A DNA stretch of 64,000 bases, taken from NCBI GenBank assembly GCA_947577185.1, contig CANPUE010000004.1, positions 62,001 through 126,000 on the forward strand. The letters run 5' to 3'. The stretch comes from an uncultured Lachnospiraceae bacterium. GTDB taxonomy: Bacteria > Bacillota > Clostridia > Lachnospirales > Lachnospiraceae. The first letter of the stretch is position 1. Each line of letters opens with the position of its first letter. Below, piece by piece: positions 29,641 through 56,567 of this stretch. The position numbers were made by a program, and so were the translations under genes. The notes below the pieces were generated by a model. The model was not told where the DNA came from. It did no database searches and worked only from the letters and a program-made list of their open reading frames with translations.

Positions 29641-30147
29641 TCAGTTCTGCAGTTCCCCAATCTGCCGCCCTTCATGGTCAAGATGATAATTGTCTCTGTA
29701 AATCAGCTCCGAGATTGGCACCAGTTCATACCCCTGCTCCTGCAGCGTCGTGATCAGGGTTTCAAGCGCCTGCGCCGTGAATTTGGCCCCATTATGACAC
29801 AGAATGATACTGCCGTTTCCCAGGTGCTTGTGCTGTGTTACTGTTTTGATTATGGAATCGACACCATAATCTTTCCAGTCGAGAGAATCCACATCCCATT
29901 GAATCGGATAGTACCCGCACTTTTTTGCTACCTTTATGACATCATTGTCATAATCTCCGTAAGGCGGGCGAAACAGGAACATTTCATAGCCAGTCAGTTC
30001 CTGCACTTTTTTATGTACTGTCATCAGTTCCTCTTCGCACTCACTGTCGGATAACTGTGACATGTTTTTATGGTTCTCGCTGTGGTTTCCCAGATCGTGG
30101 CCATCCGCCAGAATCGCCTTCACATCGTCCGGGTAAGCTTCTACCCA
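29641..30147 (-). pseudogene. PdaB-like polysaccharide deacetylase, C-terminal segment
   Basis: This is the third and last piece (169 codons with stop) of a split NodB-fold deacetylase. It begins at WVEAYPDDVKAIL and holds motif 2 (NHSENH), motif 3 (RPPYGDYD), motif 4 (WDVDSLDW) and motif 5 (LCHNG), all intact. It lacks its own start and ribosome binding site. The true upstream codons lie at 33531-33611 and 39540-39905, beyond two elements. Joined, the three segments make one 317-residue frame without a stop. The family acts on peptidoglycan or related polymers and includes sporulation PdaB proteins. Whether it is dead or restored by excision is unknown. Confidence 0.88.
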
Positions 30148-31699
30148 CCCTGAAAGGCATATCATAACTTTTTTTCCGCCGTGTGTGATCAAACTCTGCC
30201 GTCACAAACTCTGTGTTATCCAAAAAGTCAAAATAGAAGTCTAAACGCTTTTCATATACCATGATACGCTCCAGATGAGCACACAAAAGGGGCACCTCTA
30301 TGCCCTTTTCTCTCTTTTCCAAAAAGAGCGTCCGCACCCGGTTCAAACGAAAAGACAAAGCCTCCTTATCTTCTTTTGTTCTCAGGTCTTCTTCTTTTTC
30401 CTTCAACATCGTCAACTGCCTTGTAATGTCTTCCATCCTGGAACGATAATCCGATCGCGTGATCGTACCGTCTAATACAAGATCCATCAAAGTTTCTTTT
30501 CTTTTGCGAAGCTGTTCTGTCTGCCGCCGGATATCTTCCGGCTCTGCTTTCCTGCCGGAGTCAGACAATCTTTCATAAATGATTCTGATACAGCGGCTTA
30601 GCAATTGTTCGATCCTGTCTTCTGCCAACAGCTGTCTGCCTGCCTGTTCCAGAAAAGACAGCAGATCGGCTTCCTTTAGATGCATGGAAGCGCACTTTGT
30701 GCCTGCTTTTTGCTCCTCCCGGACAGAGCGCACCCCCTCACTGCAATACCAGTAGATCCCCTGCACTCTCTTGTTGCGCCAGTATTTCGAACCGCATACG
30801 CCGCAGATGATCTTTGAGGAAAGAAGCGTATTTCCCCTGTTTATGCCGCCAGTATGCGGCCTGCCTGTTGTCTTCCTGCTATCAATCTGCGCATTTGCCT
30901 TTTCCCACAGATCATCAGGCACGATCCGCGGCACGATCCCTTCCCGGTAGATCCATTCGCTCTGCGGGTTTTTGACCGTCTTTTTGGCCTCAAAATCAAA
31001 ATGTTGTTTATTCATCACCGCAGTTCCTTTATAGAGCGGGTTTTTGACGATCGCCCGTATGGTATTTTCGGATAACGTATTGCCATTGCGGTTTCGTATC
31101 CCTTCCTCCCGCAGCACTCTGGCGGCCGCCCGCCCCCCGAGACCATCGGCAAACAGTTGATAGATATGGAGGATCATCGCCGCTTCTCCTTTCTCTATGA
31201 AGATTTGCCCATCCCGGGTGCGGTATCCCCATGTGCGGTTTGTCAGGATCGGCTTTCCTTTTTCCTGCCGCCTCTTTTGCGCCGCATTGCCTTTTCTGCT
31301 CAGGTCGCGGCTGTATTCTTCCGCCATCATGGCTTTGATCCCAAATAAAAATTTATTTTTCGCATCAAAAAAGGTATTTTCCAGATACAGGTATAATTTT
31401 TTCTGATACTGAATGATCTCATTCAGAAACAGATACCAGTCCATCGTGTTGCGTTGTAACCGCGACTGGTCTTTGGCCACGATAACATCAAATCTGTCTT
31501 TCCTGATATCCTCCAGCATTCTTCTATATTCGTTTCTCTTCCTGGTCTGTGTGCCCGTGATCCCCTTATCTATGTATTCATCCACCAGAATCCATCCCTT
31601 TGCGCTGATAATATCCCGGTTTTCTTCAATCTGTTTCTCGACTGCATGCAGCTGTTCTTCCTCCTCCGTGCTCACCCTCGCGTAAAATACGGCTCTCAT
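30068..31699 (-). CDS. Large serine recombinase of element 1
   Basis: This 543-residue protein has an N-terminal resolvase catalytic domain (nucleophile Ser in FYARVSTEEEE; RLQRN arginines), a recombinase domain (TWGYRTRDGQIFIEKGE), a zinc-ribbon with CGVCGSKYW, and a coiled-coil tail. It should integrate and excise element 1. Its last ~23 codons and stop lie in host deacetylase DNA read in another frame. In the excised circle the same frame would instead run to a TAA inside the MATE terminator region. AGGGGGAGGTAAAA precedes the ATG, and a small ORF ends 12 nt upstream. Confidence 0.92.
   Translation of the reverse strand: MRAVFYARVSTEEEEQLHAVEKQIEENRDIISAKGWILVDEYIDKGITGTQTRKRNEYRRMLEDIRKDRFDVIVAKDQSRLQRNTMDWYLFLNEIIQYQKKLYLYLENTFFDAKNKFLFGIKAMMAEEYSRDLSRKGNAAQKRRQEKGKPILTNRTWGYRTRDGQIFIEKGEAAMILHIYQLFADGLGGRAAARVLREEGIRNRNGNTLSENTIRAIVKNPLYKGTAVMNKQHFDFEAKKTVKNPQSEWIYREGIVPRIVPDDLWEKANAQIDSRKTTGRPHTGGINRGNTLLSSKIICGVCGSKYWRNKRVQGIYWYCSEGVRSVREEQKAGTKCASMHLKEADLLSFLEQAGRQLLAEDRIEQLLSRCIRIIYERLSDSGRKAEPEDIRRQTEQLRKRKETLMDLVLDGTITRSDYRSRMEDITRQLTMLKEKEEDLRTKEDKEALSFRLNRVRTLFLEKREKGIEVPLLCAHLERIMVYEKRLDFYFDFLDNTEFVTAEFDHTRRKKSYDMPFRVGRSLPGRCEGDSGGWPRSGKPQREP
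30144..30147. other. Element 1 left attachment core
   Basis: CCCA (TGGG on the coding strand) at the host/element boundary. It is shared with 33527-33530. Host codons for Trp-Val-Glu lie to the left. Confidence 0.8.
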
Positions 31700-31711
31700 T
31701 TTTACCTCCCC

Positions 31712-31843
31712 CTAACGTCTCTGGTACAGAGCTGTCTTGTATTCCTCCTGCGTAATGAGCGCATATTTTTTCATAAGATCCAGCAAGTACCTGACCACTT
31801 CTTTTTCATCGTCCTGTGAGATCGCAAAAAGCTCTTCTTTCAA
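31712..31843 (-). CDS. Small ORF before recombinase (possible RDF)
   Basis: A 43-codon frame starts at TTG (31843) after GAGGAGAG and encodes KEELFAISQDDEKEVVRYLL and further charged helical residues, ending QRR. It stops 12 nt before the recombinase start, so the two are co-transcribed. Size and position suit a recombination directionality factor or regulator, but no family is recognised. Confidence 0.55.
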   Translation of the reverse strand: MKEELFAISQDDEKEVVRYLLDLMKKYALITQEEYKTALYQRR

Positions 31844-31895
31844 AGATCTCTCCTCATTAAAATAGAATTATTACTAAGTCTATTCAGGAAATAAC

Positions 31896-31923
31896 GAAAC
31901 TATCATTATGGAAACTATCATTA
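31896..31923. repeat. Tandem 13-bp direct repeat
   Basis: GAAACTATCATTA occurs at 31896-31908 and 31911-31923, a 15-bp period. It lies between the divergent recombinase and MATE transcription units and looks like a tandem operator or protein-binding site. Confidence 0.75.
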
Positions 31924-31967
31924 ATTAATCTCCGGCGTCTTATTTTCCCGATGGCCCTCTTCCGGTC

Positions 31968-31996
31968 TTGAAAATACTTTTCCAATAAAATATAAT
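31968..31996 (+). promoter_or_regulatory. Promoter of MATE gene
   Basis: TTGAAA (31968-31973), a 17-nt spacer, and a perfect TATAAT (31991-31996). Start near 32003 gives a leader of about 85 nt. Confidence 0.8.
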
Positions 31997-32008
31997 AAAA
32001 AATAATGA

Positions 32009-32063
32009 CCTGCGAAGCAGATGGCCTGTCGTTCTATTAGAAGATCAGGCAAAATATCGCAGG
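32009..32063 (+). ncRNA. Structured 5' leader of MATE gene
   Basis: The leader RNA can fold into one long imperfect hairpin: CCTGCGA (32009-32015) with TCGCAGG (32057-32063), then GCCTG (32024-32028) with CAGGC (32046-32050), then TTCT with AGAA around an AUU loop. It ends 25 nt before the start codon, close to the GGGGCGGG ribosome site. It resembles a riboswitch-like or regulatory leader, but I could not match it to a known class. Confidence 0.5.
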
Positions 32064-32087
32064 AAAAAGCAGACGGGGCGGGATCAC

Positions 32088-33479
32088 ATGGAACAGAATA
32101 CACAAAGTACACAGAACATAAAAGAACACAAAAAGAAAAAACACAGCAAAGAAAACATCCGGATCACGTTCAACATGGCGTGGCCTTCCATCGTTGAGTC
32201 TTTCTTCGTGGCTTTCGCGGGCCTGGTGGACTCACTGATGGTCAGTTCGCTCGGATCCTATGCGGTCGCCGCCGTAGGACTCACGACACAGCCGAAATTT
32301 ATCGGTCTGTCTTTATTTTTTGCCCTGAATGTGTCGATCTCTGCTCTGGTAGCCAGAAGACGCGGGGAAGAAAAACCGGAAGACGCGAACCGTATTCTGA
32401 GCACTGCTCTTGCCTTTATTCTCGCGGCCGCAGTGATCTTGAGCATCCTGTTCGTAGCGCTGGCAAGTCCTATCATCCATCTGTGCGGCTCTACGCCGGA
32501 AACGCATGACAGCGCGGTTGCCTACTTCCGCATCATCATGGGCGGCATGATCTTCAACTGTATCCAGATGGGAATCAACTCCGCGCAAAGAGGCGCGGGC
32601 AATACGAAGATCACGATGCGCACCAATGTGACTTCCAACACGATCAATATCCTTTTTAACTATCTGCTGATTAACGGACACTTTGGGTTTCCGGCGCTGG
32701 GGATCCACGGCGCAGCGCTGGCAACAGTTCTCGGAACGGTGGTTGCAAGTGTTATGAGTGTTCTTTCCATTTTAAAACCGGATGGATTTATCAGTCTGCC
32801 CTATATTGTCAAAAACAGGATCTTCCCTGCCATGACGGCTTTTGTCCATCTGGTCAGGGTCGGTTACAGTGTTTTCTTTGAACAGCTCCTTATGCGGATC
32901 GGCTTCATGATGACTGCCATCATGGCCGCCAAACAGGGCACGGATGCGATGGCCGCCCATCAGGTCGGCATGAATATCATGGGGCTTTCCTTCTCCTTTG
33001 GAGACGGTTTACAGTCTGCGGCAGTCGCTTTGATCGGGCGCAGTCTCGGCGCCAAAGACGAAGAACTCGCCAAGGAATACGGACGTATCTGCAGAATGTT
33101 CGGCGCAGCGATTGCCGCGTTCCTTACCGTCGTCTATTTTTTCGGCGCCAGACCTCTCATGAGCCTTTTCTTCGTGGAGGAACATATCGTCTCTATCGGC
33201 GTGGGCATCATGAGAGTCATCATCCTCGTAGTCGTGTTCCAGATCTGTCAGGTCGTGTACATGGGCTGTCTGCGCGGTGCGGGGGATACTCTCTATACCG
33301 CGGTCGCTTCCACAATCAGCGTGACCTTTATCCGTACAATCGCCTCATATCTGGGCGGCTACATATTTGGACTTGGTATCGTGGGCATCTGGCTTGGCGT
33401 TCTGGCGGATCAGGTTTCCCGGTTCATCTTTGCCTCAACGCGGTTTAAAAAAGGAAAATGGACGCAGATTCAGATATAG
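32088..33479 (+). CDS. MATE family efflux transporter
   Basis: This 463-residue protein has twelve predicted membrane segments in two homologous halves and MATE landmarks (MAWPSIVESFFVAFAGLVDS, INSAQRGAGNTKITM, MGCLRGAGDTLYTA). It exports cationic or aromatic compounds using Na+ or H+ gradients. It is the cargo gene of element 1, transcribed away from the recombinase from its own promoter. The stop codon lies inside its terminator hairpin. The substrate cannot be read from sequence. Confidence 0.93.
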   Translation: MEQNTQSTQNIKEHKKKKHSKENIRITFNMAWPSIVESFFVAFAGLVDSLMVSSLGSYAVAAVGLTTQPKFIGLSLFFALNVSISALVARRRGEEKPEDANRILSTALAFILAAAVILSILFVALASPIIHLCGSTPETHDSAVAYFRIIMGGMIFNCIQMGINSAQRGAGNTKITMRTNVTSNTINILFNYLLINGHFGFPALGIHGAALATVLGTVVASVMSVLSILKPDGFISLPYIVKNRIFPAMTAFVHLVRVGYSVFFEQLLMRIGFMMTAIMAAKQGTDAMAAHQVGMNIMGLSFSFGDGLQSAAVALIGRSLGAKDEELAKEYGRICRMFGAAIAAFLTVVYFFGARPLMSLFFVEEHIVSIGVGIMRVIILVVVFQICQVVYMGCLRGAGDTLYTAVASTISVTFIRTIASYLGGYIFGLGIVGIWLGVLADQVSRFIFASTRFKKGKWTQIQI

Positions 33480-33506
33480 TCTGAATCGCGTCCATTTTTC
33501 TTTTTT
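33459..33506 (+). terminator. Bidirectional terminator after MATE gene
   Basis: TGGACGC-GATTCAGA pairs with TCTGAATC-GCGTCCA around a short loop, followed by TTTTTCTTTTTT. On the other strand TTTTCCTTTTTT follows the stem, so it can work both ways. It overlaps the MATE stop codon. Confidence 0.9.
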
Positions 33507-33526
33507 CATATATGCCCATTTGACTG

Positions 33527-33530
33527 CCCA
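33527..33530. other. Element 1 right attachment core
   Basis: CCCA at the boundary to the 81-nt middle deacetylase segment; the partner of 30144-30147. Host codons for Met-Thr-Gly-Gly lie to the right. Confidence 0.8.
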
Positions 33531-33611
33531 TCCTCCGGTCATAAAAAACGTTACCTTTACGTTATGATCTTTGAGGATCTCCAGTATTTTGGGCGTATCT
33601 TCATTCCCCCA
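33531..33611 (-). pseudogene. PdaB-like deacetylase, 27-codon middle segment
   Basis: Exactly 81 nt of host gene lie stranded between two elements. They encode WGNEDTPKILEIL, then KDHNVKVTFFMTGG, the strand and helix that follow NodB motif 1. The reading frame is continuous with 39540-39905 upstream and 29641-30147 downstream once both elements are removed. No start codon or ribosome site of its own is present. The conservation of frame in so short a segment is the clearest sign that two separate precise insertions occurred in one gene. Confidence 0.88.
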
Positions 33612-35088
33612 GGGGGATGCCAAATTGCGGTAACGGACAGTGTGTCGTATATCTGCCGTCTTCCTGCCGCGTGATCATAAGCGGCCGCAGGGCGCATGCC
33701 GTAACCTTACATCCTGTCGGAGTACGCGATACGATAAATTCCGCCACGCCGCCCTTTATGCAGGATGTTTCATTCTGCGCACTCATAAAATTGCCGAGCG
33801 AATAATAAACTAACATCCGGTGCCCCCCTTCGCCTTCCAGAAAAGTATAAGGCTGGAGAACATGCGGATGTGTCCCGACGGTCACATCAACCCTGCTTTC
33901 CAGAAAAATCTGTGTCCATTTTTGCTGGAGTTCATCGGGTTTCTTTGCATATTCTGTGCCCCAATGGACAAAAACAATGACAAAATCTGTCTCTTCCTTC
34001 GCTTTGGCAATACTTTCCCTGATCTTTTCCTCATCTTTGAGCAAGTGCACCATGTACGGGTTTTCCTCCGGTATTCTGATTCCGTTTGTTCCATAGGTAT
34101 AGTTGAACAAAGCGAACCGTATCCCGTTTGCTGAAATCACTTCATAAGGCTTTTCTTCTGTTTCTTCGTCTGTCTGAATACCAAGACAGACGATATCCCG
34201 CCCTTCAAAAAAGTGTTTCGTTGTCTGGATTCCCTCTGTGCCCCTGTCGAGCGCATGGTTGGTCGCACACGTCACAACACGGAAACCGGCGTCAGCAATC
34301 GCCTCTCCCACCTGAATGGGCGTGCCGAATCTCGGATAATCACCATACCTGGCCGGTTCGTCTGTAAGCGGCGTTTCCTGATTGAGGATACAGACCTCAT
34401 TCCGGTCCAGGATGTTTCGGACATCATCAAATAGAAAATCAAAGGAACCGCCGTTTTGCAGGCCGTATCTGTAAATCGGCTCATGAATCAGGTTATCTCC
34501 GAATACCGCAAATGAAACGTCCGTCTCTTCCCTGGAAAATCCCCAGGAATCCCACACCCATCTGCTGCTGCGGCCATCAGGCTGTGTGAGCCAGAGACGG
34601 CTTCGGGTCGGTATTGACGCATCAAGGCTCAGCCTGACGACATCCGGCCCGATATAAGAAGACATCCATTTTGACGTTACGCCGTCCGCCCCGTACTCAT
34701 ATACGAAAATGTGCTGAGACCATTTTCTTTCATCTTTCTCGACCCAAAACGGTCTGTGACGGCCATACCGCCCGATTTTCCAACAGAGCAATATCAGCTC
34801 TTCCTCTCCGTCACCGTCGATATCGCCGGAAACCGCCGACTGCACTTTGATCCCGGCCGGAGAAGTCCACAGACAGGTATTCTCCCGTAAAATACAGACA
34901 GACTTCTTTTCCAGCCGTATCTCAAACTGTTCCTGTGCAGATTGGTTTTCTGTGAAGAAAGTACCGCTCTCCCAAGTGATCCAGCGCGGTAAAAAGAAGC
35001 CGCCTTTCCATAAAAGAAACAAGACGGCTCCCATACCTGCAGCCGCGGCTAAGAAAACTGCCGCTGTAATACCTGCTTTTCTTACCAT
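33601..35088 (-). CDS. CapA-family membrane-anchored protein
   Basis: This 495-residue protein has an N-terminal membrane helix (~8-28), an integrin-like DxDGDGEEELILL repeat domain, and a CapA/PgsA metallophosphoesterase-like domain. That domain includes FAVFGDNLIHEPIY, NQETPLTD, ATNHALDRGTEG and VFVHWGTEY. Relatives take part in poly-gamma-glutamate or capsule production. The stop codon TGA is made only by host DNA: the last codons CTG GGG GAA TGA cross the element 2 boundary. In a circular form the frame would end after two Arg codons instead. It lies 16 nt downstream of the DUF3160 gene. Confidence 0.87.
   Translation of the reverse strand: MVRKAGITAAVFLAAAAGMGAVLFLLWKGGFFLPRWITWESGTFFTENQSAQEQFEIRLEKKSVCILRENTCLWTSPAGIKVQSAVSGDIDGDGEEELILLCWKIGRYGRHRPFWVEKDERKWSQHIFVYEYGADGVTSKWMSSYIGPDVVRLSLDASIPTRSRLWLTQPDGRSSRWVWDSWGFSREETDVSFAVFGDNLIHEPIYRYGLQNGGSFDFLFDDVRNILDRNEVCILNQETPLTDEPARYGDYPRFGTPIQVGEAIADAGFRVVTCATNHALDRGTEGIQTTKHFFEGRDIVCLGIQTDEETEEKPYEVISANGIRFALFNYTYGTNGIRIPEENPYMVHLLKDEEKIRESIAKAKEETDFVIVFVHWGTEYAKKPDELQQKWTQIFLESRVDVTVGTHPHVLQPYTFLEGEGGHRMLVYYSLGNFMSAQNETSCIKGGVAEFIVSRTPTGCKVTACALRPLMITRQEDGRYTTHCPLPQFGIPLGE
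33607..33611. other. Element 2 left attachment core
   Basis: CCCCA (TGGGG on the coding strand) shared with 39535-39539. An inward arm GCGGTAA lies at 33627-33633. Confidence 0.8.
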
Positions 35089-35103
35089 TTTAATCTGTCC
35101 TCA

Positions 35104-37386
35104 TTAAAATTCAAAGCGGTAACTGTCAGTCCAGCCCGGCTGTGTGAAAGGCTTCTCTCCAAAATTGAAGTTTCCGTCCTCATCCGGTGAAACCCCCATT
35201 AACTGACGCCACTTTGTATCTGTCATCCGCTCTTCCATTGGCTGCGTAAACTGATAAAATGTATAGACGCTGCCTCTTGCAATCTTTTTCTTTCCTGCAA
35301 CATTCACAACGACATAAATCACAGAAGGGTCTCCTGTCGCGGCCTCTAAAACCGTACCATTGGGATCGGTCGCGATATCCACAACAAGCGCCGCGGGAAA
35401 TGCCTGCGAGCAGATCGTCTCCTCAGGCGTACTCTCTTCTTTATAAGTTTCATACCAGAAATGTTCGATATTTCCGCCGTACGCCCTGACAAATTCATTT
35501 TCCTCATCCGTCAGAGGCTCATTCTGCAATTCTTTGACTGATATAGTCAATAACCAGTCTGCCATCTGAGACAGTCTGTCCAAATTCTCTTCGTCCGACG
35601 CCCCCAACATGCCGTACTTTTTCAGTCCCTGCGCCGTCTGCTGTGCGAGGCGGACAAAACGCGAATAAACAAGCGGTTCCGGCTCCACATAGCCCCTGTC
35701 ATCAATATCCGCATCGCCGCCGCCCATCTCAGCGATCACCTGTTTGGAATAAAGAACCGTATCATGTTTTAACTCCGTAAAACTGCCTGCAAAACATTCA
35801 AGATCCTTTTTCACCCACTCTTCATTCTGCATGAATACGGGATATCCTTCTCCTTTTACATCAAGCAGGGGACGAAGCGTATGCAGCCAGCCGGCATACA
35901 GGCTTGCAGACCACAAAGGCCCCTTATCATCCGCCAGCTTCTCCCGCAGCAGATTCATATTCTCTGTATATCCTTCATAGTCCGCCGCACCGCTCTCTTC
36001 CAGAATGCGAAGCGCACAGTCGCTGCCCAGCGCCGCCGGCACATCGAGCACATCCGGAAGCATACGAAGATCTCCCGCAGCATTTTTATTCACATCACTG
36101 TAGATGAGTTTCTGCATGATCGAAGCATCTATGGAAAACCGCTGTCCCATAAAACGGAATCCGCGGATCACATTGTCTTCCCCCTGCACAATCGGAATGG
36201 AATTGATCTGCGGCTGAGGGAGAACCGCCGTCAGCTCATGGAATTTCGTAAAAGCCTCTTTCTGTGAAAGCAGGTCCTCAATTGTGACTTGCTCCCCGTA
36301 AGCTTCACGCGCTGCCGACGCATATTCGCTTACTCCCATATCATCACTCGCTCCTGCAAAAAACGATGTCACGGCATAAACTGACTGCCAGAGTTCACTG
36401 GCCCGTTCATCTTCCATAAGCGCGCAGGTCATTAAGAGCGCACTTCTGTCCAGATCCTCATCTTTCTGTTCAAAATGAATTCTGCCATACCACATCATGG
36501 CTTTGAAATATTGCGAAAGCCCGCTCTCCGCCTCATAATAACCGCGGGGAATATATTGTGTATAATCCTCCTCATCTCCTGTGATTCCGGAATACTGGAT
36601 TCCTCCGGCATCTTCAATCCGTGTCATTTCATCCCTGACAAGATCCTCCACATCCGCGGTCACTTCCGTCCCATCCTCCAGCAGTTTTGCACCTACGCCG
36701 AAAAACGCTGCATTGCGTCTCGCCGCACTTTCCCACTCACTCCCTTTTAGTTTCTCATACTGCGCAGTACTGCCCTCCAGCATCCGCACACTCAATTCTG
36801 TAAGACTGTCCGTGAGATACTCCCGTTCGATATTTTTTAAAAGGTGGCTGAAATATAAATGATATGTATGCATGAGAGAATCAACGGTTATAAAATTCGG
36901 AATCAGACTGTATCTGTTGTATTCATAAACTTCGTAAAACTCACGGCCTGCGTCTCCGAACACCACAAAACCATTTCGGGCCAGTTTGTCCCTCATTTCA
37001 TCCTCAAAATAAAACTGTTCTCTGTTTTCCACATCGCTCAAATCCGGAGCGATCGTATAAGGTTCCACACAAGGCGTTACCAAAACAGGTTCTTCCTCAA
37101 TGCGCTCTGTCAGCAGCGGTCTCTCCCCTCCTGAAAGTCCGCTCTGCCCTGCCGGAATCTCCTGCGTCAGTGTGCCTTCCCCGTCCTCCTGTTGATCCGG
37201 CGTATTCTGCTTCGATTCCGCATCATCAGACTCCGCTGTTTCTCTTTCCGAATGTACGGCGCTCTGATCCGCACTCCCCGTGTTATTCTCTGCCTCTTGT
37301 GCCGCACATGCGCTCATAAGGGCTGCCGCCAGCAGCAATGCTGTGATCTGTTTCACCTTTCTTTGTCTGGTGCCTTTTCTTTGCAT
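35104..37386 (-). CDS. DUF3160 lipoprotein
   Basis: The ATG at 37386 follows GGGGGGAAGGGTG and starts a lipoprotein signal (lipobox MSAC), so the longer frame upstream is rejected. The product is about 760 residues: an acidic Gln/Glu/Ser linker, then a large DUF3160-type body (FVVFGDAGREFYEVYEYNRY, ITVDSLMHTYHLYFSHLL, LYAGWLHTLRPLL, LVVDIATDPNGTVLEAATG). The family has no established activity. It is upstream of and likely co-transcribed with the CapA gene, as cargo of element 2. Confidence 0.85.
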   Translation of the reverse strand: MQRKGTRQRKVKQITALLLAAALMSACAAQEAENNTGSADQSAVHSERETAESDDAESKQNTPDQQEDGEGTLTQEIPAGQSGLSGGERPLLTERIEEEPVLVTPCVEPYTIAPDLSDVENREQFYFEDEMRDKLARNGFVVFGDAGREFYEVYEYNRYSLIPNFITVDSLMHTYHLYFSHLLKNIEREYLTDSLTELSVRMLEGSTAQYEKLKGSEWESAARRNAAFFGVGAKLLEDGTEVTADVEDLVRDEMTRIEDAGGIQYSGITGDEEDYTQYIPRGYYEAESGLSQYFKAMMWYGRIHFEQKDEDLDRSALLMTCALMEDERASELWQSVYAVTSFFAGASDDMGVSEYASAAREAYGEQVTIEDLLSQKEAFTKFHELTAVLPQPQINSIPIVQGEDNVIRGFRFMGQRFSIDASIMQKLIYSDVNKNAAGDLRMLPDVLDVPAALGSDCALRILEESGAADYEGYTENMNLLREKLADDKGPLWSASLYAGWLHTLRPLLDVKGEGYPVFMQNEEWVKKDLECFAGSFTELKHDTVLYSKQVIAEMGGGDADIDDRGYVEPEPLVYSRFVRLAQQTAQGLKKYGMLGASDEENLDRLSQMADWLLTISVKELQNEPLTDEENEFVRAYGGNIEHFWYETYKEESTPEETICSQAFPAALVVDIATDPNGTVLEAATGDPSVIYVVVNVAGKKKIARGSVYTFYQFTQPMEERMTDTKWRQLMGVSPDEDGNFNFGEKPFTQPGWTDSYRFEF

Positions 37387-37657
37387 CACCCTTCCCCCCT
37401 TCTTCGTGATCAGATTTTGCTTTTTCAGTATAGCACACTCTGATTTCAAAAACAATCGGCCGCACACAGAGGAGCAAAGCATATCTCCTTTCGCAGGCAG
37501 CCGCTATCCCTTATTAGCGCGGCAGCTAAATGTATGAAACCCCTGTCCGCCATTTTATCCCAAAATAATTTAGTATATTGGATAAGCAGTATCGAATATG
37601 CTGTTATGAACAGGTTGTATACCTTTTTAATTGATTCTATGCAGGAGGGATCGCCGA

Positions 37658-37810
37658 TTGAAAAATGGCAGGCAGGAAACAATACGCTATACCATTGAAA
37701 GAGAATTTTTAGCCAAAATCACTGTCGCAGAACTTGTAAACCGAATGATTCAGACCCATGCACAAGAACAGACAAAAAAGGAAGCGGCAGGGGAAGCGGT
37801 TGAAAGGTAA
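37658..37810 (+). CDS. Small ORF before recombinase 2
   Basis: A 50-codon frame starts at TTG (37658) after GCAGGAGGG. It reads KNGRQETIRYTIEREFLAKI, then TVAELVNRMIQTH and a charged tail. It stops 6 nt before the recombinase ATG, indicating translational coupling. The position matches the small ORF of element 1, though the sequences differ. Candidate directionality factor; no family recognised. Confidence 0.6.
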   Translation: MKNGRQETIRYTIEREFLAKITVAELVNRMIQTHAQEQTKKEAAGEAVER

Positions 37811-37816
37811 ACGATT

Positions 37817-39427
37817 ATGAGGAAACATATACGTTTCAACGTAGCTGAATATATTCGGTTATCAAGAGAGGACGGCGATAAGGCAGAGAGTGACAGTATT
37901 GGAAATCAGAGGAAACTGATTACAGATTACTTAAAAGACAAGGACGACTTTGTTTTGTATGACACTTACATAGATGACGGTTTCACGGGAACAAATTTTA
38001 ACCGCCCCTCATTTAAGAGAATGATTGCAGACATAGAAGCCGGAAAAGTGAATTGTGTGATGGTAAAAGACCTTTCCAGGTTCGGACGCGATTACATCGA
38101 CACAGGAAACTACCTGGAACGCTATTTCCCGGATCACGAAGTGCGTTTCATTTCCATTACGGATCATATTGACAGCATGAAGCAGGCCTATGATATGCTG
38201 CTGCCTATAAAGAATATCTTTAATGAGCAGTACGCACGGGACATTTCAAAAAAAGTCCATGCTTCCATGAAAACCAAACAGAGGGCGGGGGAATTTATAG
38301 GAGCGTTTGCTTCCTACGGCTATCGGAAATCGCCTATTGATAAAAACAAACTGGTTATTGATGAATATGCCGCCGGAATTATCCGCAAAATCTTCAAACT
38401 CTATATAGACGGATATGGAAAAATCCGTATCGCAGCTATACTGAATGAGGACGGAATTGTATGCCCGTCTGAATACAAAAAGATAAACGGAGATCATTAC
38501 AGAAACAGCAACCGTTTAGACAGTACCTCCTACTGGACGTATTCAACCATAAACCGTATTCTTCAAAATGAAATGTATATCGGTAACATGGTTCAGAACA
38601 GGAAAAGTCAACAAATGAGAGGGAAATCAAAAGCCCAGGACAGGGAAGACTGGATTGTAGTAAAAGGCACGCATGAAGCGATCATTGATGAGGAAACATG
38701 GAATAAGGTACAGGACTTGTTGAAACGCAGGACACGTAATCTCGACCTGAACAGCAACATGAGCATTTTTGCAGGCTTTTTGAAATGCGGGGATTGCGGC
38801 AGGTCTTTAGCAAAGAAAACCGGGACATCGGGACACGGCCGCGGTATTGTCAATTACTATTGCGGGACATATGTACGCTCCGGCAGACAATATTGTACTC
38901 CACACCCTATACCGCATTTGGTTTTGGAAAAAATCATTTTGGAAGATCTGAATGCGATCATGCAGAACATTGACAATATGCGTGAAATCATTGAACAGAA
39001 CCAGGAAGCAGCCGTTACAGGAAAGCGTGTAAATGAAAATGAGAAAACCCGTCTGACTGCTGAACTGGAAAAAGTACGAAAGCTGAAAAAAGTGGTTTAT
39101 GAGGATTACCTGAGTGAACTGCTTTCGAAAGATGAATTTGTCACATATCGGCAGGATTACCTGAAGAAAGAAGACTTACTGGAAAAGCAGCTTGAAAGCA
39201 TAGCCAACAGGCAGGACGAAACGACGCCGGATATTTTTGACAGCCCATGGATAAAACGTCTGTTAGAGCATAGGGTGATCGAAAAATTGGACAGGAGTAT
39301 TGTGCTGGAAATGATAAATGAAATAACGGTATCTGAAAATCACAAAATCAAGATCACTTACAATTTTTCCGGCGAATTGGAATCACTTTTCAAAACAGTA
39401 TATACCAACAAAGAGAATATCGGCTGA
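37817..39427 (+). CDS. Large serine recombinase of element 2 (TnpX-like)
   Basis: This 536-residue protein has a resolvase domain (nucleophile in AEYIRLSREDGD; DGFTGTNFNRPSFKRMI; VKDLSRFGRDYID), a recombinase domain (YGYRKSPIDKNKL), a zinc-ribbon (CGDCGRSLAKK) and a coiled coil. The DGFTGTNFNRP and LSREDGD elements are typical of the Tn4451 TnpX/TndX group. It lies 107 nt from the right end of element 2 and is fully inside the element. It presumably catalyses integration at the TGGGG core. Confidence 0.93.
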   Translation: MRKHIRFNVAEYIRLSREDGDKAESDSIGNQRKLITDYLKDKDDFVLYDTYIDDGFTGTNFNRPSFKRMIADIEAGKVNCVMVKDLSRFGRDYIDTGNYLERYFPDHEVRFISITDHIDSMKQAYDMLLPIKNIFNEQYARDISKKVHASMKTKQRAGEFIGAFASYGYRKSPIDKNKLVIDEYAAGIIRKIFKLYIDGYGKIRIAAILNEDGIVCPSEYKKINGDHYRNSNRLDSTSYWTYSTINRILQNEMYIGNMVQNRKSQQMRGKSKAQDREDWIVVKGTHEAIIDEETWNKVQDLLKRRTRNLDLNSNMSIFAGFLKCGDCGRSLAKKTGTSGHGRGIVNYYCGTYVRSGRQYCTPHPIPHLVLEKIILEDLNAIMQNIDNMREIIEQNQEAAVTGKRVNENEKTRLTAELEKVRKLKKVVYEDYLSELLSKDEFVTYRQDYLKKEDLLEKQLESIANRQDETTPDIFDSPWIKRLLEHRVIEKLDRSIVLEMINEITVSENHKIKITYNFSGELESLFKTVYTNKENIG

Positions 39428-39534
39428 TGTATCAAACATCAGCCGAAAATAGCAAAAAGTCCGCATCTGCAAAATACTGTCGGTACAAAACAGCGTGTGT
39501 CATATCAGTTTCATTTTACCGCAGGTTACCGCCG

Positions 39535-39539
39535 CCCCA
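39535..39539. other. Element 2 right attachment core
   Basis: CCCCA at the element/host border. Two TTACCGC arms lie just inside (39516-39522 and 39526-39532). Confidence 0.8.
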
Positions 39540-39905
39540 TGCCGCGTCAAAACTCAGCGCAATCTGATTTTTATCCGTCTGCACGCAGTAAATCGGCAGT
39601 TCCCTTCCGTTAACCGAATTGCTGACGGTGATGGAATCAGGCAGTACCTTTGTGATTCCCTGGATCAGCGCTACCGTTGTGAGCAGAAAGGCCGCCGACA
39701 TAACCGCACGTGTCATGACTTCCTGTCTAAACTCTGCCTTTTTCCATTCTGCTTTGTTCCGATAGCCGTCTTTCCCGCCGCGGCTCTTCTTCCGCCCGTA
39801 TGTCTTTGGCTTTTTTTCTTCTTCCGTATCGATCTTTCGTTCCAATACGTTCAGACTCATTTTAAATTTTTCATTCCATGTTTTACCCGTTTTTTTTCCG
39901 CACAT
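39540..39905 (-). pseudogene. PdaB-like deacetylase, N-terminal segment
   Basis: This is the first 122 codons of the split deacetylase: a basic cytoplasmic tail, one membrane helix (~65-85), a stem, and the first strand ending IALSFDAA, which is NodB motif 1 with Ala in place of the second Asp. That substitution is common in PdaB-type sporulation deacetylases. Beyond 39540 the frame enters element 2 and stops after seven altered codons (WGGGNLR). The gene promoter would lie in 39906-40040. In the current arrangement only a membrane-tethered stub can be made. Confidence 0.88.
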
Positions 39906-40045
39906 GAAAACGCTCCGTATATGATTCTTTCTACAGTATATGCCCGTGATCTCTATCCCATTTCCTTTCCCGCAAAAAACTGCTCCTGATCTGCCTAAAA
40001 GGCCGAAAAACCGAAAAAATCAACCTGTTTTTTTTTGTTTAGCCC

Positions 40046-52212: not shown

Positions 52213-53578
52213 TCACGTTCTTGCCAACACCTCAAACGTCCTGCTGATATTCAGTTTGCCGTAGCCCCATCTCCGATCCGGATAGATAATGTTGCTCTCC
52301 CGCACCGCCCCCCGGATCAGATCGCTCTTGATCGTCCGGCTCTCCGCATAGGGCGCATAACCGTCGACCACAGCCCATTCCATGAACTGAGCTGCGCATC
52401 CGGCGGCGAGTGCTGCCGCCATGCTGGCGCCGGAGCGGCTCCCCAAAGCAGTGGAAACCTGTACGCCCGGCGCCGCCAGATCCGGCTTAATCGTGCTGTT
52501 GGCCGTAAACCCTCTCCCTGATTCGGAGAACCAGCTCCCGTTATGTCCATTATATGCGGAAACCGTGATCACATTTTTGGCGTTGGCGGGTTCCGTCAGC
52601 GTCACATCGGGGCTTGGTTCCAGAAATCTGGCTTCCCCGTCAATAAACTCTGTGATCGGAAGCCACAAATGGTATCTGCCGACATTGCGGACGCCGTCCT
52701 GTTCCGAAGGTGTCACAATTATGCTCCAAATACCGGGTGACGGATTCTCAAAGCGGAAAAAGATCAGTTCGTTGCCGGAACGTTTCTCAACCAATGACAG
52801 TCCTGTATAGATTTTGGTTCTGTCAAACAGAAAACTGTATTCATTGTCAGTCATATTACGGAAATCGATTACAGAAGTCATTTCTCCGCCCGGCGTGCGC
52901 AGTACCACACTGTAAATATCGATCCGGTTTCCCCAAAGTTCCATGCAAAACCCTTTTGTATTTTCTCCGACACGCAGTTCAATCTGTTCCGGCATCATCG
53001 CCGTATAATGATGCTCTTTATCTCCTTCATTGCCGCCGCAGACAACGACCGCCCTGCTCCTTCTTGTAGCGATCTGATCAAGATAGGACGCCAACGGGGA
53101 GTTTCCTTCATGGTCTCCCATATTGGTGCCGATCCCCAGCACGATCACGACCGGCCTTTGAAATACAATCGCCATGCCCTCGAGATATTTTACCGCTTCC
53201 ATGATATCATTCTCCTGATAGGCCTCGGCGTCATCGTCGATCAGATAAAAATCTCTGAGATACTGTTTGGCTCCCTTTAGCTTTACAACTGCGATATCCG
53301 AGCGCGGCGCGGCGCCTCGAAATGTCAGTCCCTGATCGATGATACTGCCTGCTGCCGCGGAGGCCATCGCAGTCCCGTGCCCGTTTTCATCCGTGGACGG
53401 TACAATCGTCAGCGGCTGGCCGCTCTGTATCGCGCGGTCAATCTCCTCCCGCTTATATTCCGTCCCGTATAAAAAACCTTCGGGCGGCTCTCCGGACTGT
53501 ATCGTCTGATCCCATATCGAGAGGATTCTGCTGCTGCCGTCCTCATTCTTAAAGACATCCAGATCATATCGTATCCCC
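52213..53578 (-). pseudogene. Csp-like S8 subtilase, C-terminal segment
   Basis: This 455-codon piece of a split subtilase starts at GIRYDLDVFKNEDG and contains the catalytic His in DENGHGTAMAS and the catalytic Ser in GSRSGASMAAALAAG. A long insert between them is typical of the clostridial Csp germination proteases (WDQTIQSG is also characteristic). The ATG at 53367 is internal, not a true start. The catalytic Asp and the first 106 codons are at 62906-63225, beyond element 3. Upstream the frame hits a stop inside the element. Joined, both pieces give 561 codons without interruption. Confidence 0.88.
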
Positions 53579-54808
53579 TCTGGTGTTCAATAAATGCGGC
53601 TTCCATTGAATTGTGATCTGTTGTTCCTTATAAACGACGATCTTATCAACTGCGTTTTCGATCAGCTCCTTTGCAGATCCGCCGCCCTGTACGTTTGACT
53701 GCACCTGCAGGAGAACAGCTTCTTCCACAAACAGTGCATCGGCCCTGACCACACAGTCTTCCATTGCGCTAAAGTAACGTCGGGGACAGGAAAAGTACGG
53801 GTTTTTTCCTCCGCGGCAGCGCAGATTGCTTTTGCAGGCGCCGCATACCAGCTTTCCGACAAGGGGATGTGTCCGGTTGTCGCGAGGCATCCGCCCCTTT
53901 CCCCGCCCCTTCTGTACCATATCAAAGATTTCCCTGTCGATAAGGGGTTCGTGATGCCCTCTGCCAACGAGCCATTGCGCACGGGGTTTTAAATGATTCT
54001 TTCCGCCGACAAAATCTTTTTCGTATTTTTTCTGTACAATGTTTCCGATGTAGACCTCATTTCTGAGAATCTGGCATATCGTACTACTATTCCACAGAAA
54101 CTTCTCTCCTTTGGGCACGCGGCTGGTCTTTCCCTTTTTTATCTTAAATTCAATGGGTGTCTGAACCTGCATCTCATTGAACATCCTTGCGGTCTCCACA
54201 GATGTGTACCCTTCCACCGCCAGAGAAAAAATCCACCTGACGATCTGTGCCTCGTCTTCCGCAATCACAAGCGCATGTCTGTCATCCGGGGATTTTTCAT
54301 ATCCAAACGGACTGTTTGCACTCACATACTGCCCCTTTTCTTTCCTGACAGCGAGCGAAGAACGCACCTTTACCGATATGTCTTTGCTGTACAGATCATA
54401 CAGCAGGTTCTTAAAATTCACATCGATTCCGGCGCCGTTTCCCAAAAGAGCCGCACTGTCATAATGGTCATTGACAGAAATAAACCGAATCCCCAGAAAC
54501 GGAAAGATCTGTTCCAGGTATGCGCCAAGCTCTATATAGTCTCTTGCAAATCTGGAAAAATCCTTCACAAGAATACAGTCGAGCTCACGTTTTTTTGCCC
54601 TTTTCAAAAGTTCCCGCACCGCCGGGCGCTCGAAATTTGTGCCTGTATAACCGTCATCACAAAACTCCGTCAGTTCATACTCTGCGAAGTGTTCCGCGGC
54701 ATATTTTCGCAGAAGGAGTCTCTGCGTGGTGATACTGCCGCTTTCATCTTTCGTTTTATCATCCTCTTTCGAGAGACGGATATAGACCGCGATCCGACAG
54801 ACTGCCAT
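53564..54808 (-). CDS. Serine recombinase A of element 3
   Basis: The ATG at 54808 follows GGAAGGTGTTTCGG. The 414-residue protein has a resolvase domain (nucleophile in AVYIRLSKEDD; DDGYTGTNFERP; LVKDFSRFARDYIE), a recombinase domain and a zinc-ribbon (CGACKSNLRC...CPRRYF). It is shorter than the other two because the coiled-coil tail is reduced. Its last codons and TGA stop come from host DNA. The start overlaps recombinase B by 50 nt. Confidence 0.92.
   Translation of the reverse strand: MAVCRIAVYIRLSKEDDKTKDESGSITTQRLLLRKYAAEHFAEYELTEFCDDGYTGTNFERPAVRELLKRAKKRELDCILVKDFSRFARDYIELGAYLEQIFPFLGIRFISVNDHYDSAALLGNGAGIDVNFKNLLYDLYSKDISVKVRSSLAVRKEKGQYVSANSPFGYEKSPDDRHALVIAEDEAQIVRWIFSLAVEGYTSVETARMFNEMQVQTPIEFKIKKGKTSRVPKGEKFLWNSSTICQILRNEVYIGNIVQKKYEKDFVGGKNHLKPRAQWLVGRGHHEPLIDREIFDMVQKGRGKGRMPRDNRTHPLVGKLVCGACKSNLRCRGGKNPYFSCPRRYFSAMEDCVVRADALFVEEAVLLQVQSNVQGGGSAKELIENAVDKIVVYKEQQITIQWKPHLLNTRGDTI
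53575..53578. other. Element 3 left attachment core
   Basis: CCCC (GGGG on the coding strand), shared with 62902-62905. The arm GTGTTCAATAA begins 4 nt inside (53583-53593). Confidence 0.85.
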
Positions 54809-56567
54809 CCGAAACACCTTCCTTCCCGGAAAACAGGGGCCTCCTTCTGAAGGCAAAAATCACTCTCACCCGGTGATCCGGATGAATTTCGATCCTGTCG
54901 ATCAGTGCCCGTACCGCCTCTGCGGTCAGTGCCCCGTTTCCCTTCGTCATGTTCCTGAGAACCTGCTTTTTTTCAGCGCTCTGCGCTTGTGTCATCCTGA
55001 GGTTTTCTAAAACAGAAGCCTTCTCTTCCCGCAAAGAAACAATCTTTTTATCATTCTCTTTCTTTGCCTGTCTGAAACAGCCTTCGTCCATCTCCCCCAT
55101 CCGGTATTGAAGATACTGTTCACTCCCATGCCGTATCAAACTCTCCAGCCTTTTTTCTAATGCTGTGAGTCTGCCGCCGCATTCTTTTTTCAGGATCTCC
55201 GTTTTTATCTCCATCTCTGTTTTCATTTCCATTTCTGTCTTCATTTCCATTTCTGTCTTCATTTCCATCTCTATCTCTATTTCTTTGTCACCGTATTCCG
55301 GCAGCGTCCGGGGACACATCGCGGACAAGGCGATTTCCTGCTGCAGTGCCTTTTTCACAAGTTCCGTAAGCGCGCACAGCGTTATGCGCTTCTTCTCACA
55401 GCGCCATCCGTCTATCCTCCCTGACCTGGGACAATGATAACTGTATGTCCTCACCCTGTCCTTTGAGCCCAGTTCTTTTACCGCACAGATCCGTTTCATT
55501 TTTGCTCCGCACTCACCGCAGTAGAGGACTTCCGCAAAGATATCCTCCTCCATGGGAACTTTTTTAGAAAATCCGTTTTTGTTACAGTACACACTGTTTT
55601 TTTCAAACTTTGCGGCCGCTTCAAAGAAACGTTCCTCACTGACAAGCGCCTGATGGGTATGCTCTTTTATCGACCAGTCCCCGGAATCGATGTCGTGCCG
55701 CCCGCGCATCCTGTAGTCTTTCCCGCAGGTCCGCCCCTGGACCAGACAACCCATATACACCGGATTTGTCAGGATCCGTTTCACGGTAGCGTGCGGCCAT
55801 TGTTCCAGCCTGCTCTGCTCCTGACAGTAAATCTCTCCTGTCTTATGGTACTGCGCAGGTCTGACGATCCTGTTTTCATAGAGCCAGACAACAATCTCTT
55901 TCATGTTCCTGTCAGAAAGAAATAAGTCATATATCTTTTTTACAATGTCGGATGTGATTTCTTCCGCCATAAGGCATTTCCGATCTCCCATCCTCCCGAT
56001 TCTGTATCCATACGGCGCCACACAGCCCGTATAGTTCCCCTGCTCCCACTGCGCTTTTCTGCTTGCCTTTACTTTTGTGGAAATGTCTCTCGCATACAGC
56101 TCATTTATCAGGTTTTTCAGGTGAAGACGAAACGCCTCATTGCGTCCTGACTGATTCATGCTGTCAAAATGGTCCGTGACAGCTATGAAGCGCACTCCCA
56201 GAAAAGGAAATATCTTTTCGATGTAGTTTCCTGTTTCAATATGATCCCTTCCCAGCCGGGACAGGTCTTTGACTACGATACAGTCAATTTTGCGCATCCG
56301 CACGTCCCGCATCATCTGTTCAAACCCTTCCCGCTTAAAGTCTGTCCCGCTCTTCCCGATATCCATATAGCAGTCATATACTTCCATGTCCCTGTGCTGT
56401 CCGATGAATGCTTTTGCAATTTCCACCTGCGCCGCAATCGATTCCCGCTTTCCTGCGTCCGCATCCACCGAGATCCTTGCATAGATGCCGACGGAAAACA
56501 CCCGTTCCGGCTTCCCGCCTGCCAGTATAGTTACCGCCGCCTGTTCTCTTATCGATGACTCTGACAT
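54759..56567 (-). CDS. Serine recombinase B of element 3
   Basis: This 602-residue protein has a resolvase domain (nucleophile in GIYARISVDADAG; VKDLSRLGRDHIE), a recombinase domain (YGYRIGRMGDRK), a zinc-ribbon (CGECGAKMKRI) and a long coiled-coil tail. The tail contains an in-frame tandem repeat of MEMKTE. The DGYSGTNF element of its neighbours reads IGKSGTDFKREGF here. It is in the middle of three recombinase genes, starting 1 nt after the stop of recombinase C. Confidence 0.92.
   Translation of the reverse strand: MSESSIREQAAVTILAGGKPERVFSVGIYARISVDADAGKRESIAAQVEIAKAFIGQHRDMEVYDCYMDIGKSGTDFKREGFEQMMRDVRMRKIDCIVVKDLSRLGRDHIETGNYIEKIFPFLGVRFIAVTDHFDSMNQSGRNEAFRLHLKNLINELYARDISTKVKASRKAQWEQGNYTGCVAPYGYRIGRMGDRKCLMAEEITSDIVKKIYDLFLSDRNMKEIVVWLYENRIVRPAQYHKTGEIYCQEQSRLEQWPHATVKRILTNPVYMGCLVQGRTCGKDYRMRGRHDIDSGDWSIKEHTHQALVSEERFFEAAAKFEKNSVYCNKNGFSKKVPMEEDIFAEVLYCGECGAKMKRICAVKELGSKDRVRTYSYHCPRSGRIDGWRCEKKRITLCALTELVKKALQQEIALSAMCPRTLPEYGDKEIEIEMEMKTEMEMKTEMEMKTEMEIKTEILKKECGGRLTALEKRLESLIRHGSEQYLQYRMGEMDEGCFRQAKKENDKKIVSLREEKASVLENLRMTQAQSAEKKQVLRNMTKGNGALTAEAVRALIDRIEIHPDHRVRVIFAFRRRPLFSGKEGVSDGSLSDRGLYPSLERG
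55210..55282. repeat. 18-bp tandem repeat inside recombinase B
   Basis: About four imperfect copies of an 18-bp unit (plus strand TCTGTCTTCATTTCCATT) encode repeating Met-Glu-Met-Lys-Thr-Glu. Slippage would change copy number without shifting frame, altering the length of the coiled coil. Confidence 0.88.

What the first reader, a model, noticed from the sequence alone, without database searches (positions are those of the whole stretch)
29641..39905. One deacetylase gene cut into three pieces by two different recombinase elements
The PdaB-like deacetylase lies in segments of 366, 81 and 507 nt at 39540-39905, 33531-33611 and 29641-30147. Each is a multiple of three, and together they form one 318-codon frame (317 residues plus stop) with NodB motifs in order. 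The 27-codon middle segment is stranded between two elements with distinct recombinases and cores. Two independent precise insertions into one gene, neither followed by decay of the frame, is unusual.
Basis: partly seen in the sequence, partly recalled or inferred. Interest (0 to 1): 0.93.

Follow-up and report, generated by a model that had tools for sequence, protein, structure and literature searches.

The report
Spore gene split by stacked elements
In a bacterium that is likely a gut Lachnospiraceae, a gene of the spore-associated PdaB family lies in three exact pieces because two DNA elements with different recombinases sit inside it, relatives carry such elements at the same few fixed points of this gene, and the elements are predicted to cut themselves out and restore the gene in the mother cell during spore formation.

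Summary
Confirmed, and part of something larger. The three segments join into one 317-codon PdaB-type deacetylase frame that aligns with uninterrupted orthologs over nearly its whole length. Two large-serine-recombinase (LSR) elements of 5,928 and 3,383 bp separate them. In the window's genus, 16 of 37 genomes have pdaB split, 20 have it uninterrupted at the four known sites, 1 is undetermined. The breaks fall at four exact codons inside conserved NodB motifs. S2 and S4 recombinases are each one clade (100/100); S1 recombinases are related, but one origin is not shown. Stacked breaks recur: S1+S2 here, S2+S4 in G036, S1+S4 in G052, perhaps G003. 21 of 21 split genes with both pieces in hand join to an open frame. 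Elements move between species at the same site: G009/G011 recombinase dS 0.029 against pdaB dS 0.87. A second gene in this window, a Csp-type germination protease, is split by a third element. Most likely these are skin-like elements excised in the mother cell; excision was not observed. The kind is known (sigK, spsM, gerE and others); the multi-site, stacked hot spot in a spore gene is new as far as searched.

The parts
39540..39905 (-). pdaB segment 1 (codons 1-122: N-terminus, hydrophobic stretch, up to FDAA of NodB motif 1)
33531..33611 (-). pdaB segment 2 (codons 123-149, WGNED...FFMTGG), stranded between the two elements
29641..30147 (-). pdaB segment 3 (codons 150-317 and stop)
33612..39539 (.). 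element A (site S1), 5,928 bp
39535..39539 (-). attL core of site S1 (TGGGG), followed by the attP right arm CGGCGGTAACCTGCGG
33607..33611 (-). attR core of site S1 (TGGGG)
37817..39427 (+). recA, large serine recombinase of element A (536 aa; Resolvase, Recombinase, Zn_ribbon_recom domains)
37658..37810 (+). small ORF just upstream of recA, conserved with it in several S1 elements; candidate accessory or directionality factor (inferred)
35104..37482 (-). DUF3160 protein, cargo of element A
33601..35088 (-). PGA_cap (CapA-like) protein, cargo of element A; its last codons run into the att core
30148..33530 (.). element B (site S2), 3,383 bp
33527..33530 (-). attL core of site S2 (TGGG)
30144..30147 (-). 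attR core of site S2 (TGGG)
30068..31699 (-). recB, large serine recombinase of element B; its C-terminal codons read out of frame into pdaB segment 3
31712..31843 (-). 43-aa ORF just upstream of recB, conserved in most aligned S2 elements; candidate accessory factor (inferred)
32088..33479 (+). MATE efflux transporter, cargo of element B
39935..39943 (-). GCATATACT box upstream of pdaB, conserved in relatives; resembles the -10 of sporulation sigma factors (resemblance recalled, untested)
62902..63225 (-). second interrupted gene: Csp-type subtilase, N-terminal piece ending in VDTG
52213..53574 (-). second interrupted gene: Csp-type subtilase, C-terminal piece
53575..62901 (.). third element, 9,327 bp: three tandem LSRs (56568-58235, 54759-56567, 53564-54856, -), NhaC-like antiporter (58567-59988, -), NACHT-pentapeptide protein (59972-62518, -)

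Best explanation
[quoted passage not shown] Shown: the pieces, the cores, the partly dyad-symmetric attP sequences, the match of recombinase family to site, the spread of some elements between species at the same site, and unbroken frames in the split genes tested. Inferred: that recombinase plus an unidentified directionality factor excises each element; that this happens in the mother cell; that TG- and GG-centred sites keep the two reactions apart; that PdaB is made only after both excisions, since no unexcised piece holds the whole NodB domain. The reason for the hot spot is inferred too: conserved NodB codons give a stable DNA target, and a gene needed only in a terminal cell tolerates interruption if excision is timely.
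For: Joined frame of 317 aa, PdaB profile score equal to three intact orthologs. Of 37 same-genus genomes 16 split, 20 uninterrupted at the four sites (one of them, G015, up to an assembly gap after codon 243), 1 undetermined. Four exact sites: S1 codon 123, S2 150, S3 165, S4 about 236. Site matches recombinase family: S2 (7 rows) and S4 (6 rows) are single clades, 100/100; S1 (15 rows) needs two changes. Of recB relatives at 65% identity or more in 61 genomes, 6 of 6 sit at pdaB S2; of recA relatives at 50% or more, 8 of 9 sit at S1. attP dyad centre TG in 9 of 9 S1 elements examined; the S1 cores of G010 and G033 differ right after TG. 21 of 21 split genes with both pieces give one open frame, 0 internal stops. 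dN of codons 90-317, G000 against four intact genes, 0.041-0.053; intact G016 against three of these, 0.042-0.053. Same-site pairs: G026/G031 dN 0.078, dS 1.504; G014/G030 0.124, 1.207. Mobility: G009/G011 element 98.9% identical over 5,848 bp, recombinase dS 0.029, pdaB dS 0.868. This genome has sigE, sigG, a SigK-type sigma and a SASP. In C. difficile the csp operon and three polysaccharide deacetylases are sigma-E (mother cell) genes (PMC3789822, passages); SpoIIID binds upstream of B. subtilis ybaN (PMC517825, passages; that ybaN is pdaB is recalled and in the TIGR02764 name). Precedents for excision: PMC4191935 and PMC5025042 (passages), PMC5595907 (passages and Discussion).
Against: No excision was seen: the assembly holds no repaired S1 junction (the S2 junction and circle junctions were not searched). 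The host is a 67%-complete draft; SpoIVA was not found in it, so spore formation is likely but unproven. The S1 insertion may be recent here, so absence of decay in this genome proves little. The 27-codon middle segment has dN 0.065-0.082 to the four intact genes against 0.016-0.040 for G016 against three of them: few changes, but not slower. Only 5 of 9 recombinase pairs compared show recombinase dS well below pdaB dS (G009/G011, G000/G003, G000/G033, G000/G089, G036/G030); the other four do not. No directionality factor is identified; the small ORFs are guesses. The promoter-like sequence before recB looks weaker here than in relatives (by eye). G035, with an intact copy, also carries a decayed S2 remnant, so these elements can die. 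One recA-type gene lies away from pdaB (G029). S2 dyads are singly weak (21 to 124 of 500 shuffles as good).
Confidence: 0.76

Rival explanations
1. The elements are ordinary mobile cassettes in slow, unregulated balance between integration and excision; a minority of cells has a whole pdaB at any time, and sporulation is left to those cells.
For: Some elements clearly move between species; cargo differs between elements at one site, and G000 and G033 share only the recombinase end; both recombinases resemble SCC cassette recombinases distantly (CcrB 108.3 and 147.5 bits, cut-off 900); several S2 relatives show a plausible sigma-A-like sequence (TTGATA, 17 bases, TATATT) before the recombinase operon (read by eye).
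Against: Constraint on pdaB like that on intact genes and 21 of 21 open frames fit reliable restoration better; recA and recB relatives are tied to this gene, 8 of 9 and 6 of 6; a second gene of a mother-cell class is split in the same window.
Confidence: 0.15
2. The gene is dead or dying: recent insertions have knocked pdaB out, and the lineage is losing sporulation or does not need PdaB.
For: Some insertions are recent (S1 recombinase dS 0.31-0.38 between G000 and G003 or G033); a decayed remnant exists in G035; SpoIVA not found here; the middle segment has a slightly raised dN.
Against: 16 of 37 same-genus genomes are split, yet 21 of 21 split genes tested (other genera included) lack any internal stop; two same-site pairs have dN/dS of about 0.05 and 0.10 at dS above 1; sigE, sigG, SigK-type sigma and SASP present.
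Confidence: 0.07
3. Assembly or binning artefact that joins unrelated contigs inside pdaB.
For: The same-genus cases are draft genomes, several with pieces on different contigs, and one apparent S4 break (G015) proved to be an assembly gap plus a separate piece.
Against: The same cores and arms appear in independent assemblies; both window elements lie complete on one 157,687-base contig; an IMG/VR record also shows a pdaB piece between two LSRs.
Confidence: 0.01

Closest known systems
skin element of sigK (B. subtilis, C. difficile)
   Same: LSR element in a mother-cell sporulation gene; excision rejoins the frame; in C. difficile a constitutive LSR and a mother-cell directionality factor (PMC5025042, passages)
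   Different: prophage-like, one element in the gene; here two stacked elements without recognised phage genes in pdaB
gin element of gerE (B. cereus ATCC10987)
   Same: non-phage LSR element in a sporulation gene, with signs of recent horizontal transfer (PMC5595907, passages and Discussion)
   Different: one 28.6-kb element with three LSRs at one site; here 5.9 and 3.4 kb with one LSR each, at two sites. The csp element with its three LSRs resembles gin more
SP-beta in spsM, vfbin in spoVFB, vrin in spoVR, yin in yabG
   Same: site-specific interruption of sporulation genes (PMC4191935, PMC10747680, passages)
   Different: prophage or prophage-like, single insertion; no pdaB or csp case in the passages seen
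Heterocyst interruption elements (nifD, nifH, hupL, fdxN)
   Same: same gene interrupted at several fixed positions; 10 of 87 genes carry multiple elements, nifD of Rivularia four; recombinase clusters mostly follow position (PMC4874684, passages)
   Different: cyanobacteria and nitrogen fixation in a terminal cell; not sporulation
Staphylococcal cassette chromosome (SCC) with Ccr recombinases
   Same: LSR cassette with exchangeable cargo; CcrB is the best NCBIfam hit of both recombinases
   Different: scores far below cut-off; SCC sits at rlmH without splitting a frame (recalled)

Membership tests
Sporulation gene-intervening element (skin, gin, vfbin type) | inserted inside the coding sequence of a sporulation gene | tested here: met
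   'sporulation gene' rests on PdaB profile similarity and literature, not on expression in this host
Sporulation gene-intervening element (skin, gin, vfbin type) | element encodes a site-specific recombinase | tested here: met
   three-domain LSR in each element
Sporulation gene-intervening element (skin, gin, vfbin type) | excision between short shared cores restores the frame exactly | tested here: met
   in silico only
Sporulation gene-intervening element (skin, gin, vfbin type) | excision happens during sporulation, in the mother cell | not testable with these tools
   needs reads from sporulating cells; the assembly lacks the repaired S1 junction
Sporulation gene-intervening element (skin, gin, vfbin type) | recombination directionality factor encoded or available | tested here: inconclusive
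   small ORFs upstream of recA and recB are conserved with them; function unknown
PdaB (TIGR02764) | whole-protein score above the curated cut-off 237.4 | tested here: not met
   217.2 bits; three intact orthologs also fall short at 214.9-217.0, so filed only as PdaB-type
CspBA or CspC germination protease (second gene) | score above the curated cut-offs (1250 and 675) | tested here: not met
   C-terminal piece alone 170.4 and 137.6 bits; the joined protein was not scored, so filed only as Csp-type
SCC cassette (CcrA/B/C) | recombinase above the NCBIfam cut-off 900 (CcrB) | tested here: not met
   108.3 and 147.5 bits
Prophage | phage structural genes in the element | tested here: inconclusive
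   the proteins scanned are LSR, DUF3160, PGA_cap and MATE; no phage protein library was run on the elements

The most novel reading that the evidence does not exclude
Mother-cell genes of Lachnospiraceae are a germline-safe landing zone in which mobile cassettes stack: finishing a spore in this bacterium requires at least three independent programmed excisions (two in pdaB, one in a csp germination protease), each by its own recombinase and core, so that the mother-cell genome is rewired at several places per sporulation and the set of required excisions changes from species to species by horizontal transfer.
Probability: 0.5. Interest if true: 0.9.

Novelty: new variant of a known kind. Interest (0 to 1): 0.82.

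Why it matters
Programmed gene repair in sporulation is known from single elements in a handful of genes. Here one spore gene is an insertion hot spot, split in 16 of 37 genomes of a genus, with four fixed sites, a matching recombinase family at most of them and stacked insertions, and a second spore-related gene is split about 12 kb away. If true, several open questions become testable: why LSR elements settle in mother-cell genes, how several excisions are timed together, whether stacked elements act as an AND gate on sporulation, and where directionality factors come from. It also offers a family of natural LSR and att pairs, and warns that pdaB and csp may be annotated as broken genes in gut genomes.

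Tried and rejected
Sigma-E, sigma-K and sigma-G promoters before the recombinases: the alignments show conserved blocks but no convincing sporulation promoter (by eye). A pattern scan for sigma-E-like promoters upstream of pdaB hit 3 of 28 sequences and was dropped; 28 of 48 available upstream sequences were aligned, and the GCATATACT box was seen by eye there. Other LSRs of this genome: loci L197-L201 were read as open-frame lists only, no clear split gene seen, not pursued. Phage, plasmid and viral collections: among rows listed, recA relatives in phage records reach 36.7% identity (8 of 722 records listed), recB relatives in plasmids 32.1% (5 of 420 listed), recA relatives in IMG/VR 51% and recB relatives 35%. 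The 5' piece of the single-contig genome G405 was not found in about 50 kb upstream, so it is not used as a complete case.

Mended on checking: G015 was first counted as an S4 break; one search shows that its 5' part runs through S4 into a run of N, and that the S4-armed 3' end on another contig is a separate piece. It was moved to the uninterrupted class and dropped from the 22 rows, leaving 21. G003 has S1 and an S4-armed 3' end, but its middle piece is missing, so its double is only possible. Other dropped or faulty rows: G020 mis-anchored, redone; G014 was anchored wrongly and G030 and G059 failed, not counted; G000 segment 3 was missing and is taken. The listing was cut, so counts outside the genus are lower bounds: a pdaB piece with a site arm on at least one side was read in 16 genomes of other genera, S1 in G076, G089, G117, G167, G230, G285, G324, G405, G445, G456, S2 in G333, S3 in G375, S4 in G184, G221, G311, G393; G335 ends at a contig end and is unclassified; G324 and G311 also have an uninterrupted copy. 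Structure prediction was not tried, because the joined protein is not a contiguous sequence of the window.
Full report
Observation. On the minus strand, 39540-39905, 33531-33611 and 29641-30147 join into a 317-codon frame with one terminal stop. The joined protein matches Polysacc_deac_1 (127.7 bits) and is closest to PdaB (217.2 bits, cut-off 237.4); three uninterrupted orthologs score 214.9-217.0, so the shortfall is not decay. Segment 1 ends just past the motif-1 Asp (FDAA) and segment 3 lacks motif 1, so no unexcised piece carries the whole catalytic domain.

Elements. Element A (33612-39539, 5,928 bp) carries recA (536 aa LSR), a small ORF just upstream, a DUF3160 protein and a PGA_cap protein. 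Element B (30148-33530, 3,383 bp) carries recB (LSR), a 43-aa ORF just upstream and a MATE transporter. No phage structural gene was recognised among the proteins scanned; no phage library was run.

Relatives. The window is G000:C4:62001-126000 of a 2.49-Mb draft genome, 67% complete. A scan of 61 genomes with the joined protein gave 37 of the same genus. In 20 of them one frame covers all four sites; in one of these, G015, the frame then runs into a stretch of N. 16 are split: S1 in G009, G010, G011, G026, G031, G033; S2 in G014, G020, G025 (3' piece only) and G030; S3 in G001 (5' piece only) and G022; S4 in G029; two sites in G000 (S1+S2) and G036 (S2+S4); S1 with a possible S4 in G003, whose middle piece is not in the assembly. 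G004 is undetermined because the contig ends at codon 207. Of the 24 genomes of other families, G052 has a middle piece with an S1 arm on one side and an S4 arm on the other (its 5' piece was not found), and G059 has S4; the rest were not examined further. The hits in a GTDB collection are mostly titled Lachnospiraceae or Eisenbergiella; the best three bear other titles (Clostridium sp., Bacillus sp., Muribaculaceae bacterium). A second scan of 397 family genomes, whose listing was cut, added 16 genomes of other genera in which a pdaB piece with a site arm on at least one side was read.

Sites. The four cut points lie at FDAA|WG (S1), FMTGG|W (S2), LA|(D/A)GHD beside the NHSxNH motif (S3) and around W(D/S)(V/I)|DSLDW (S4). 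An IMG/VR record (L209) shows a pdaB piece running from S1 to codon 211 with LSR genes on both sides, which suggests a fifth site at FRPP. In reconstructed attP sequences the best centre of dyad symmetry falls on TG in 9 of 9 S1 elements (500 shuffles were as good 0 to 30 times) and on GG in 4 of 4 S2 elements, singly weak (21 to 124 of 500); S3 of G022 centres on GG and S4 of G029 on GA, 0 of 500 each. The S1 attL cores of G010 (TGAGG) and G033 (TGTGG) differ right after TG, which agrees with TG as the exchange point.

Recombinases and sites. In a tree of 34 LSRs, S2 (7 rows) and S4 (6 rows) each form one group with 100/100 support; S1 (15 rows) needs two changes and is one group in 17% of bootstraps; S3 (3 rows, tandem genes) needs two changes, 26 of 500 shuffles being as low; the three tandem csp LSRs are not a group (500 of 500). 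For all five groups together 0 of 200 shuffles were as low. In 61 genomes, all 6 recB relatives with 65% identity or more lie at pdaB S2, the next listed being 43% or less; of 9 recA relatives with 50% or more, 8 lie at S1 and one, in G029, lies elsewhere, with no pdaB piece in the 19.9 kb read.

Mobility. The S1 elements of G009 and G011 are 98.9% identical over 5,848 bp and their recombinases differ by dS 0.029, while pdaB differs by dS 0.868. Similar gaps: G036/G030 recB 0.246 against 1.84; G000/G003 recA 0.31 against 1.892 (194 codons); G000/G033 0.376 against 1.013 (190 codons); G000/G089 0.589 against saturation. No such gap in the other four pairs compared: G026/G031 (saturated against 1.504), G014/G030 (1.883 against 1.207), G036/G020 (1.416 against 2.308), G000/G036 (2.483 against 2.286). 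Those may be old or separate insertions. G000 and G033 match by blastn only over the first 1,992 bp of the element (recA and small ORF) at about 90% identity.

Constraint. 21 of 21 split genes with both pieces in hand join to an open frame with no internal stop (without G015; cutting at a codon boundary makes the piece lengths multiples of three by construction). dN of codons 90-317 between G000 and four intact genes is 0.041-0.053, and between the intact G016 and three others 0.042-0.053. By segment: codons 1-122, 0.179-0.243 against 0.198-0.218; codons 123-149, 0.065-0.082 against 0.016-0.040; codons 150-317, 0.030-0.056 against 0.048-0.058; dS is near or at saturation. Same-site pairs: G026/G031 dN 0.078, dS 1.504; G014/G030 0.124, 1.207; G009/G011 0.081, 0.868. 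Counter-example: G035 has an intact gene and, elsewhere, an S2 remnant in which codons 150-312 align over only 333 bases beside a recombinase fragment.

Second gene. 62902-63225 and 52213-53574 (-) join at a GGGG core into a 561-aa subtilase; its C-terminal piece is closest to germination proteases CspBA and CspC (170.4 and 137.6 bits, below their cut-offs). The joined protein is 79% identical over its full length to an uninterrupted gene in G006. Of 37 same-genus genomes 34 have one frame matching from residue 1 or 2 to at least 546; G000 is split; G016 has only the first 109 residues, ending at the same point, its other piece not found; G034 has only a weaker paralog match. The 9,327-bp element holds three tandem LSRs; the S3 element of G022 shows two whole LSRs and the start of a third.

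Mechanism. In C. difficile and B. subtilis, LSR elements in mother-cell genes are excised by the LSR, in studied cases with a directionality factor, and the spore keeps the element because only the mother cell is rearranged (PMC5025042, PMC4191935, passages). The csp operon and three polysaccharide deacetylases of C. difficile are sigma-E genes (PMC3789822, passages), and SpoIIID binds upstream of ybaN of B. subtilis (PMC517825, passages). Both split genes of this window thus belong to mother-cell classes, which is why I commit to mother-cell excision. This step is inferred. The genome has sigE, sigG, a SigK-type sigma and a SASP; SpoIVA was not found. The repaired S1 junction is not in the assembly, as expected for vegetative or spore DNA, but that is no proof.

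Novelty. Searches of the paper library with terms for intervening elements, pdaB, LSR and sporulation listed no paper on a pdaB or csp intervening element; I saw listings, and passages of a few papers; most subscription journals are not held. Multiple elements in one gene are known from heterocyst cyanobacteria (10 of 87 genes; PMC4874684, passages). A large LSR survey reports target-gene enrichment in competence genes, and its main text holds the word sporulation once and polysaccharide deacetylase not at all (PMC10083194, passages). Hence: a new variant of a known kind.

Noticed in passing
window 52213-63225 (-): Csp-type germination protease split at its VDTG motif by a 9,327-bp element with three tandem LSRs, an NhaC-like antiporter and a NACHT-pentapeptide protein; in G016 the gene ends at the same point.
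   Followed up: partly
L119 6162-6401 and 4574-4780; L126 6115-6558; L153 26-256: Extra copies of the pdaB 3' end, with S4-like or S3 arms (one with another junction), lie downstream of a complete 3' end (G009) or gene (G008) or on another contig (G015). Some elements may bring a replacement 3' end and restore the gene on integration, a different strategy at the same sites.
   Followed up: partly
L209 1-3413: IMG/VR record with a pdaB piece (codons 123-211) between an S1-type LSR and another LSR: a stacked case with a possible fifth site at the FRPP motif.
   Followed up: partly
L223 (G029:C59), about 8653-10206 and 11971: recA-type recombinase (66% identity) not at pdaB, with an S1-like att arm followed by other sequence; target not identified.
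   Followed up: no
window 30068-30147 (-): recB reads through attR into pdaB, so its last residues would differ between integrated and circular forms (predicted ...RVGRSLPG... against ...RVGSQMGI...).
   Followed up: partly
window 33601-33611 (-): The PGA_cap cargo gene ends inside the att core; excision would change only its last residue or two.
   Followed up: partly
upstream of pdaB in relatives; window 39935-39943 (-): A GCATATACT-like box just before the pdaB start is conserved in most of 28 aligned sequences, while the -35 region is not obvious.
   Followed up: partly
L160 (G035:C43) about 9796-10444: Decayed S2 remnant: shortened pdaB 3' end and a recombinase C-terminal fragment in a genome with an intact pdaB elsewhere.
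   Followed up: partly
window 28469-29287 (-): 272-aa protein downstream of pdaB without any Pfam match at E 0.001.
   Followed up: no
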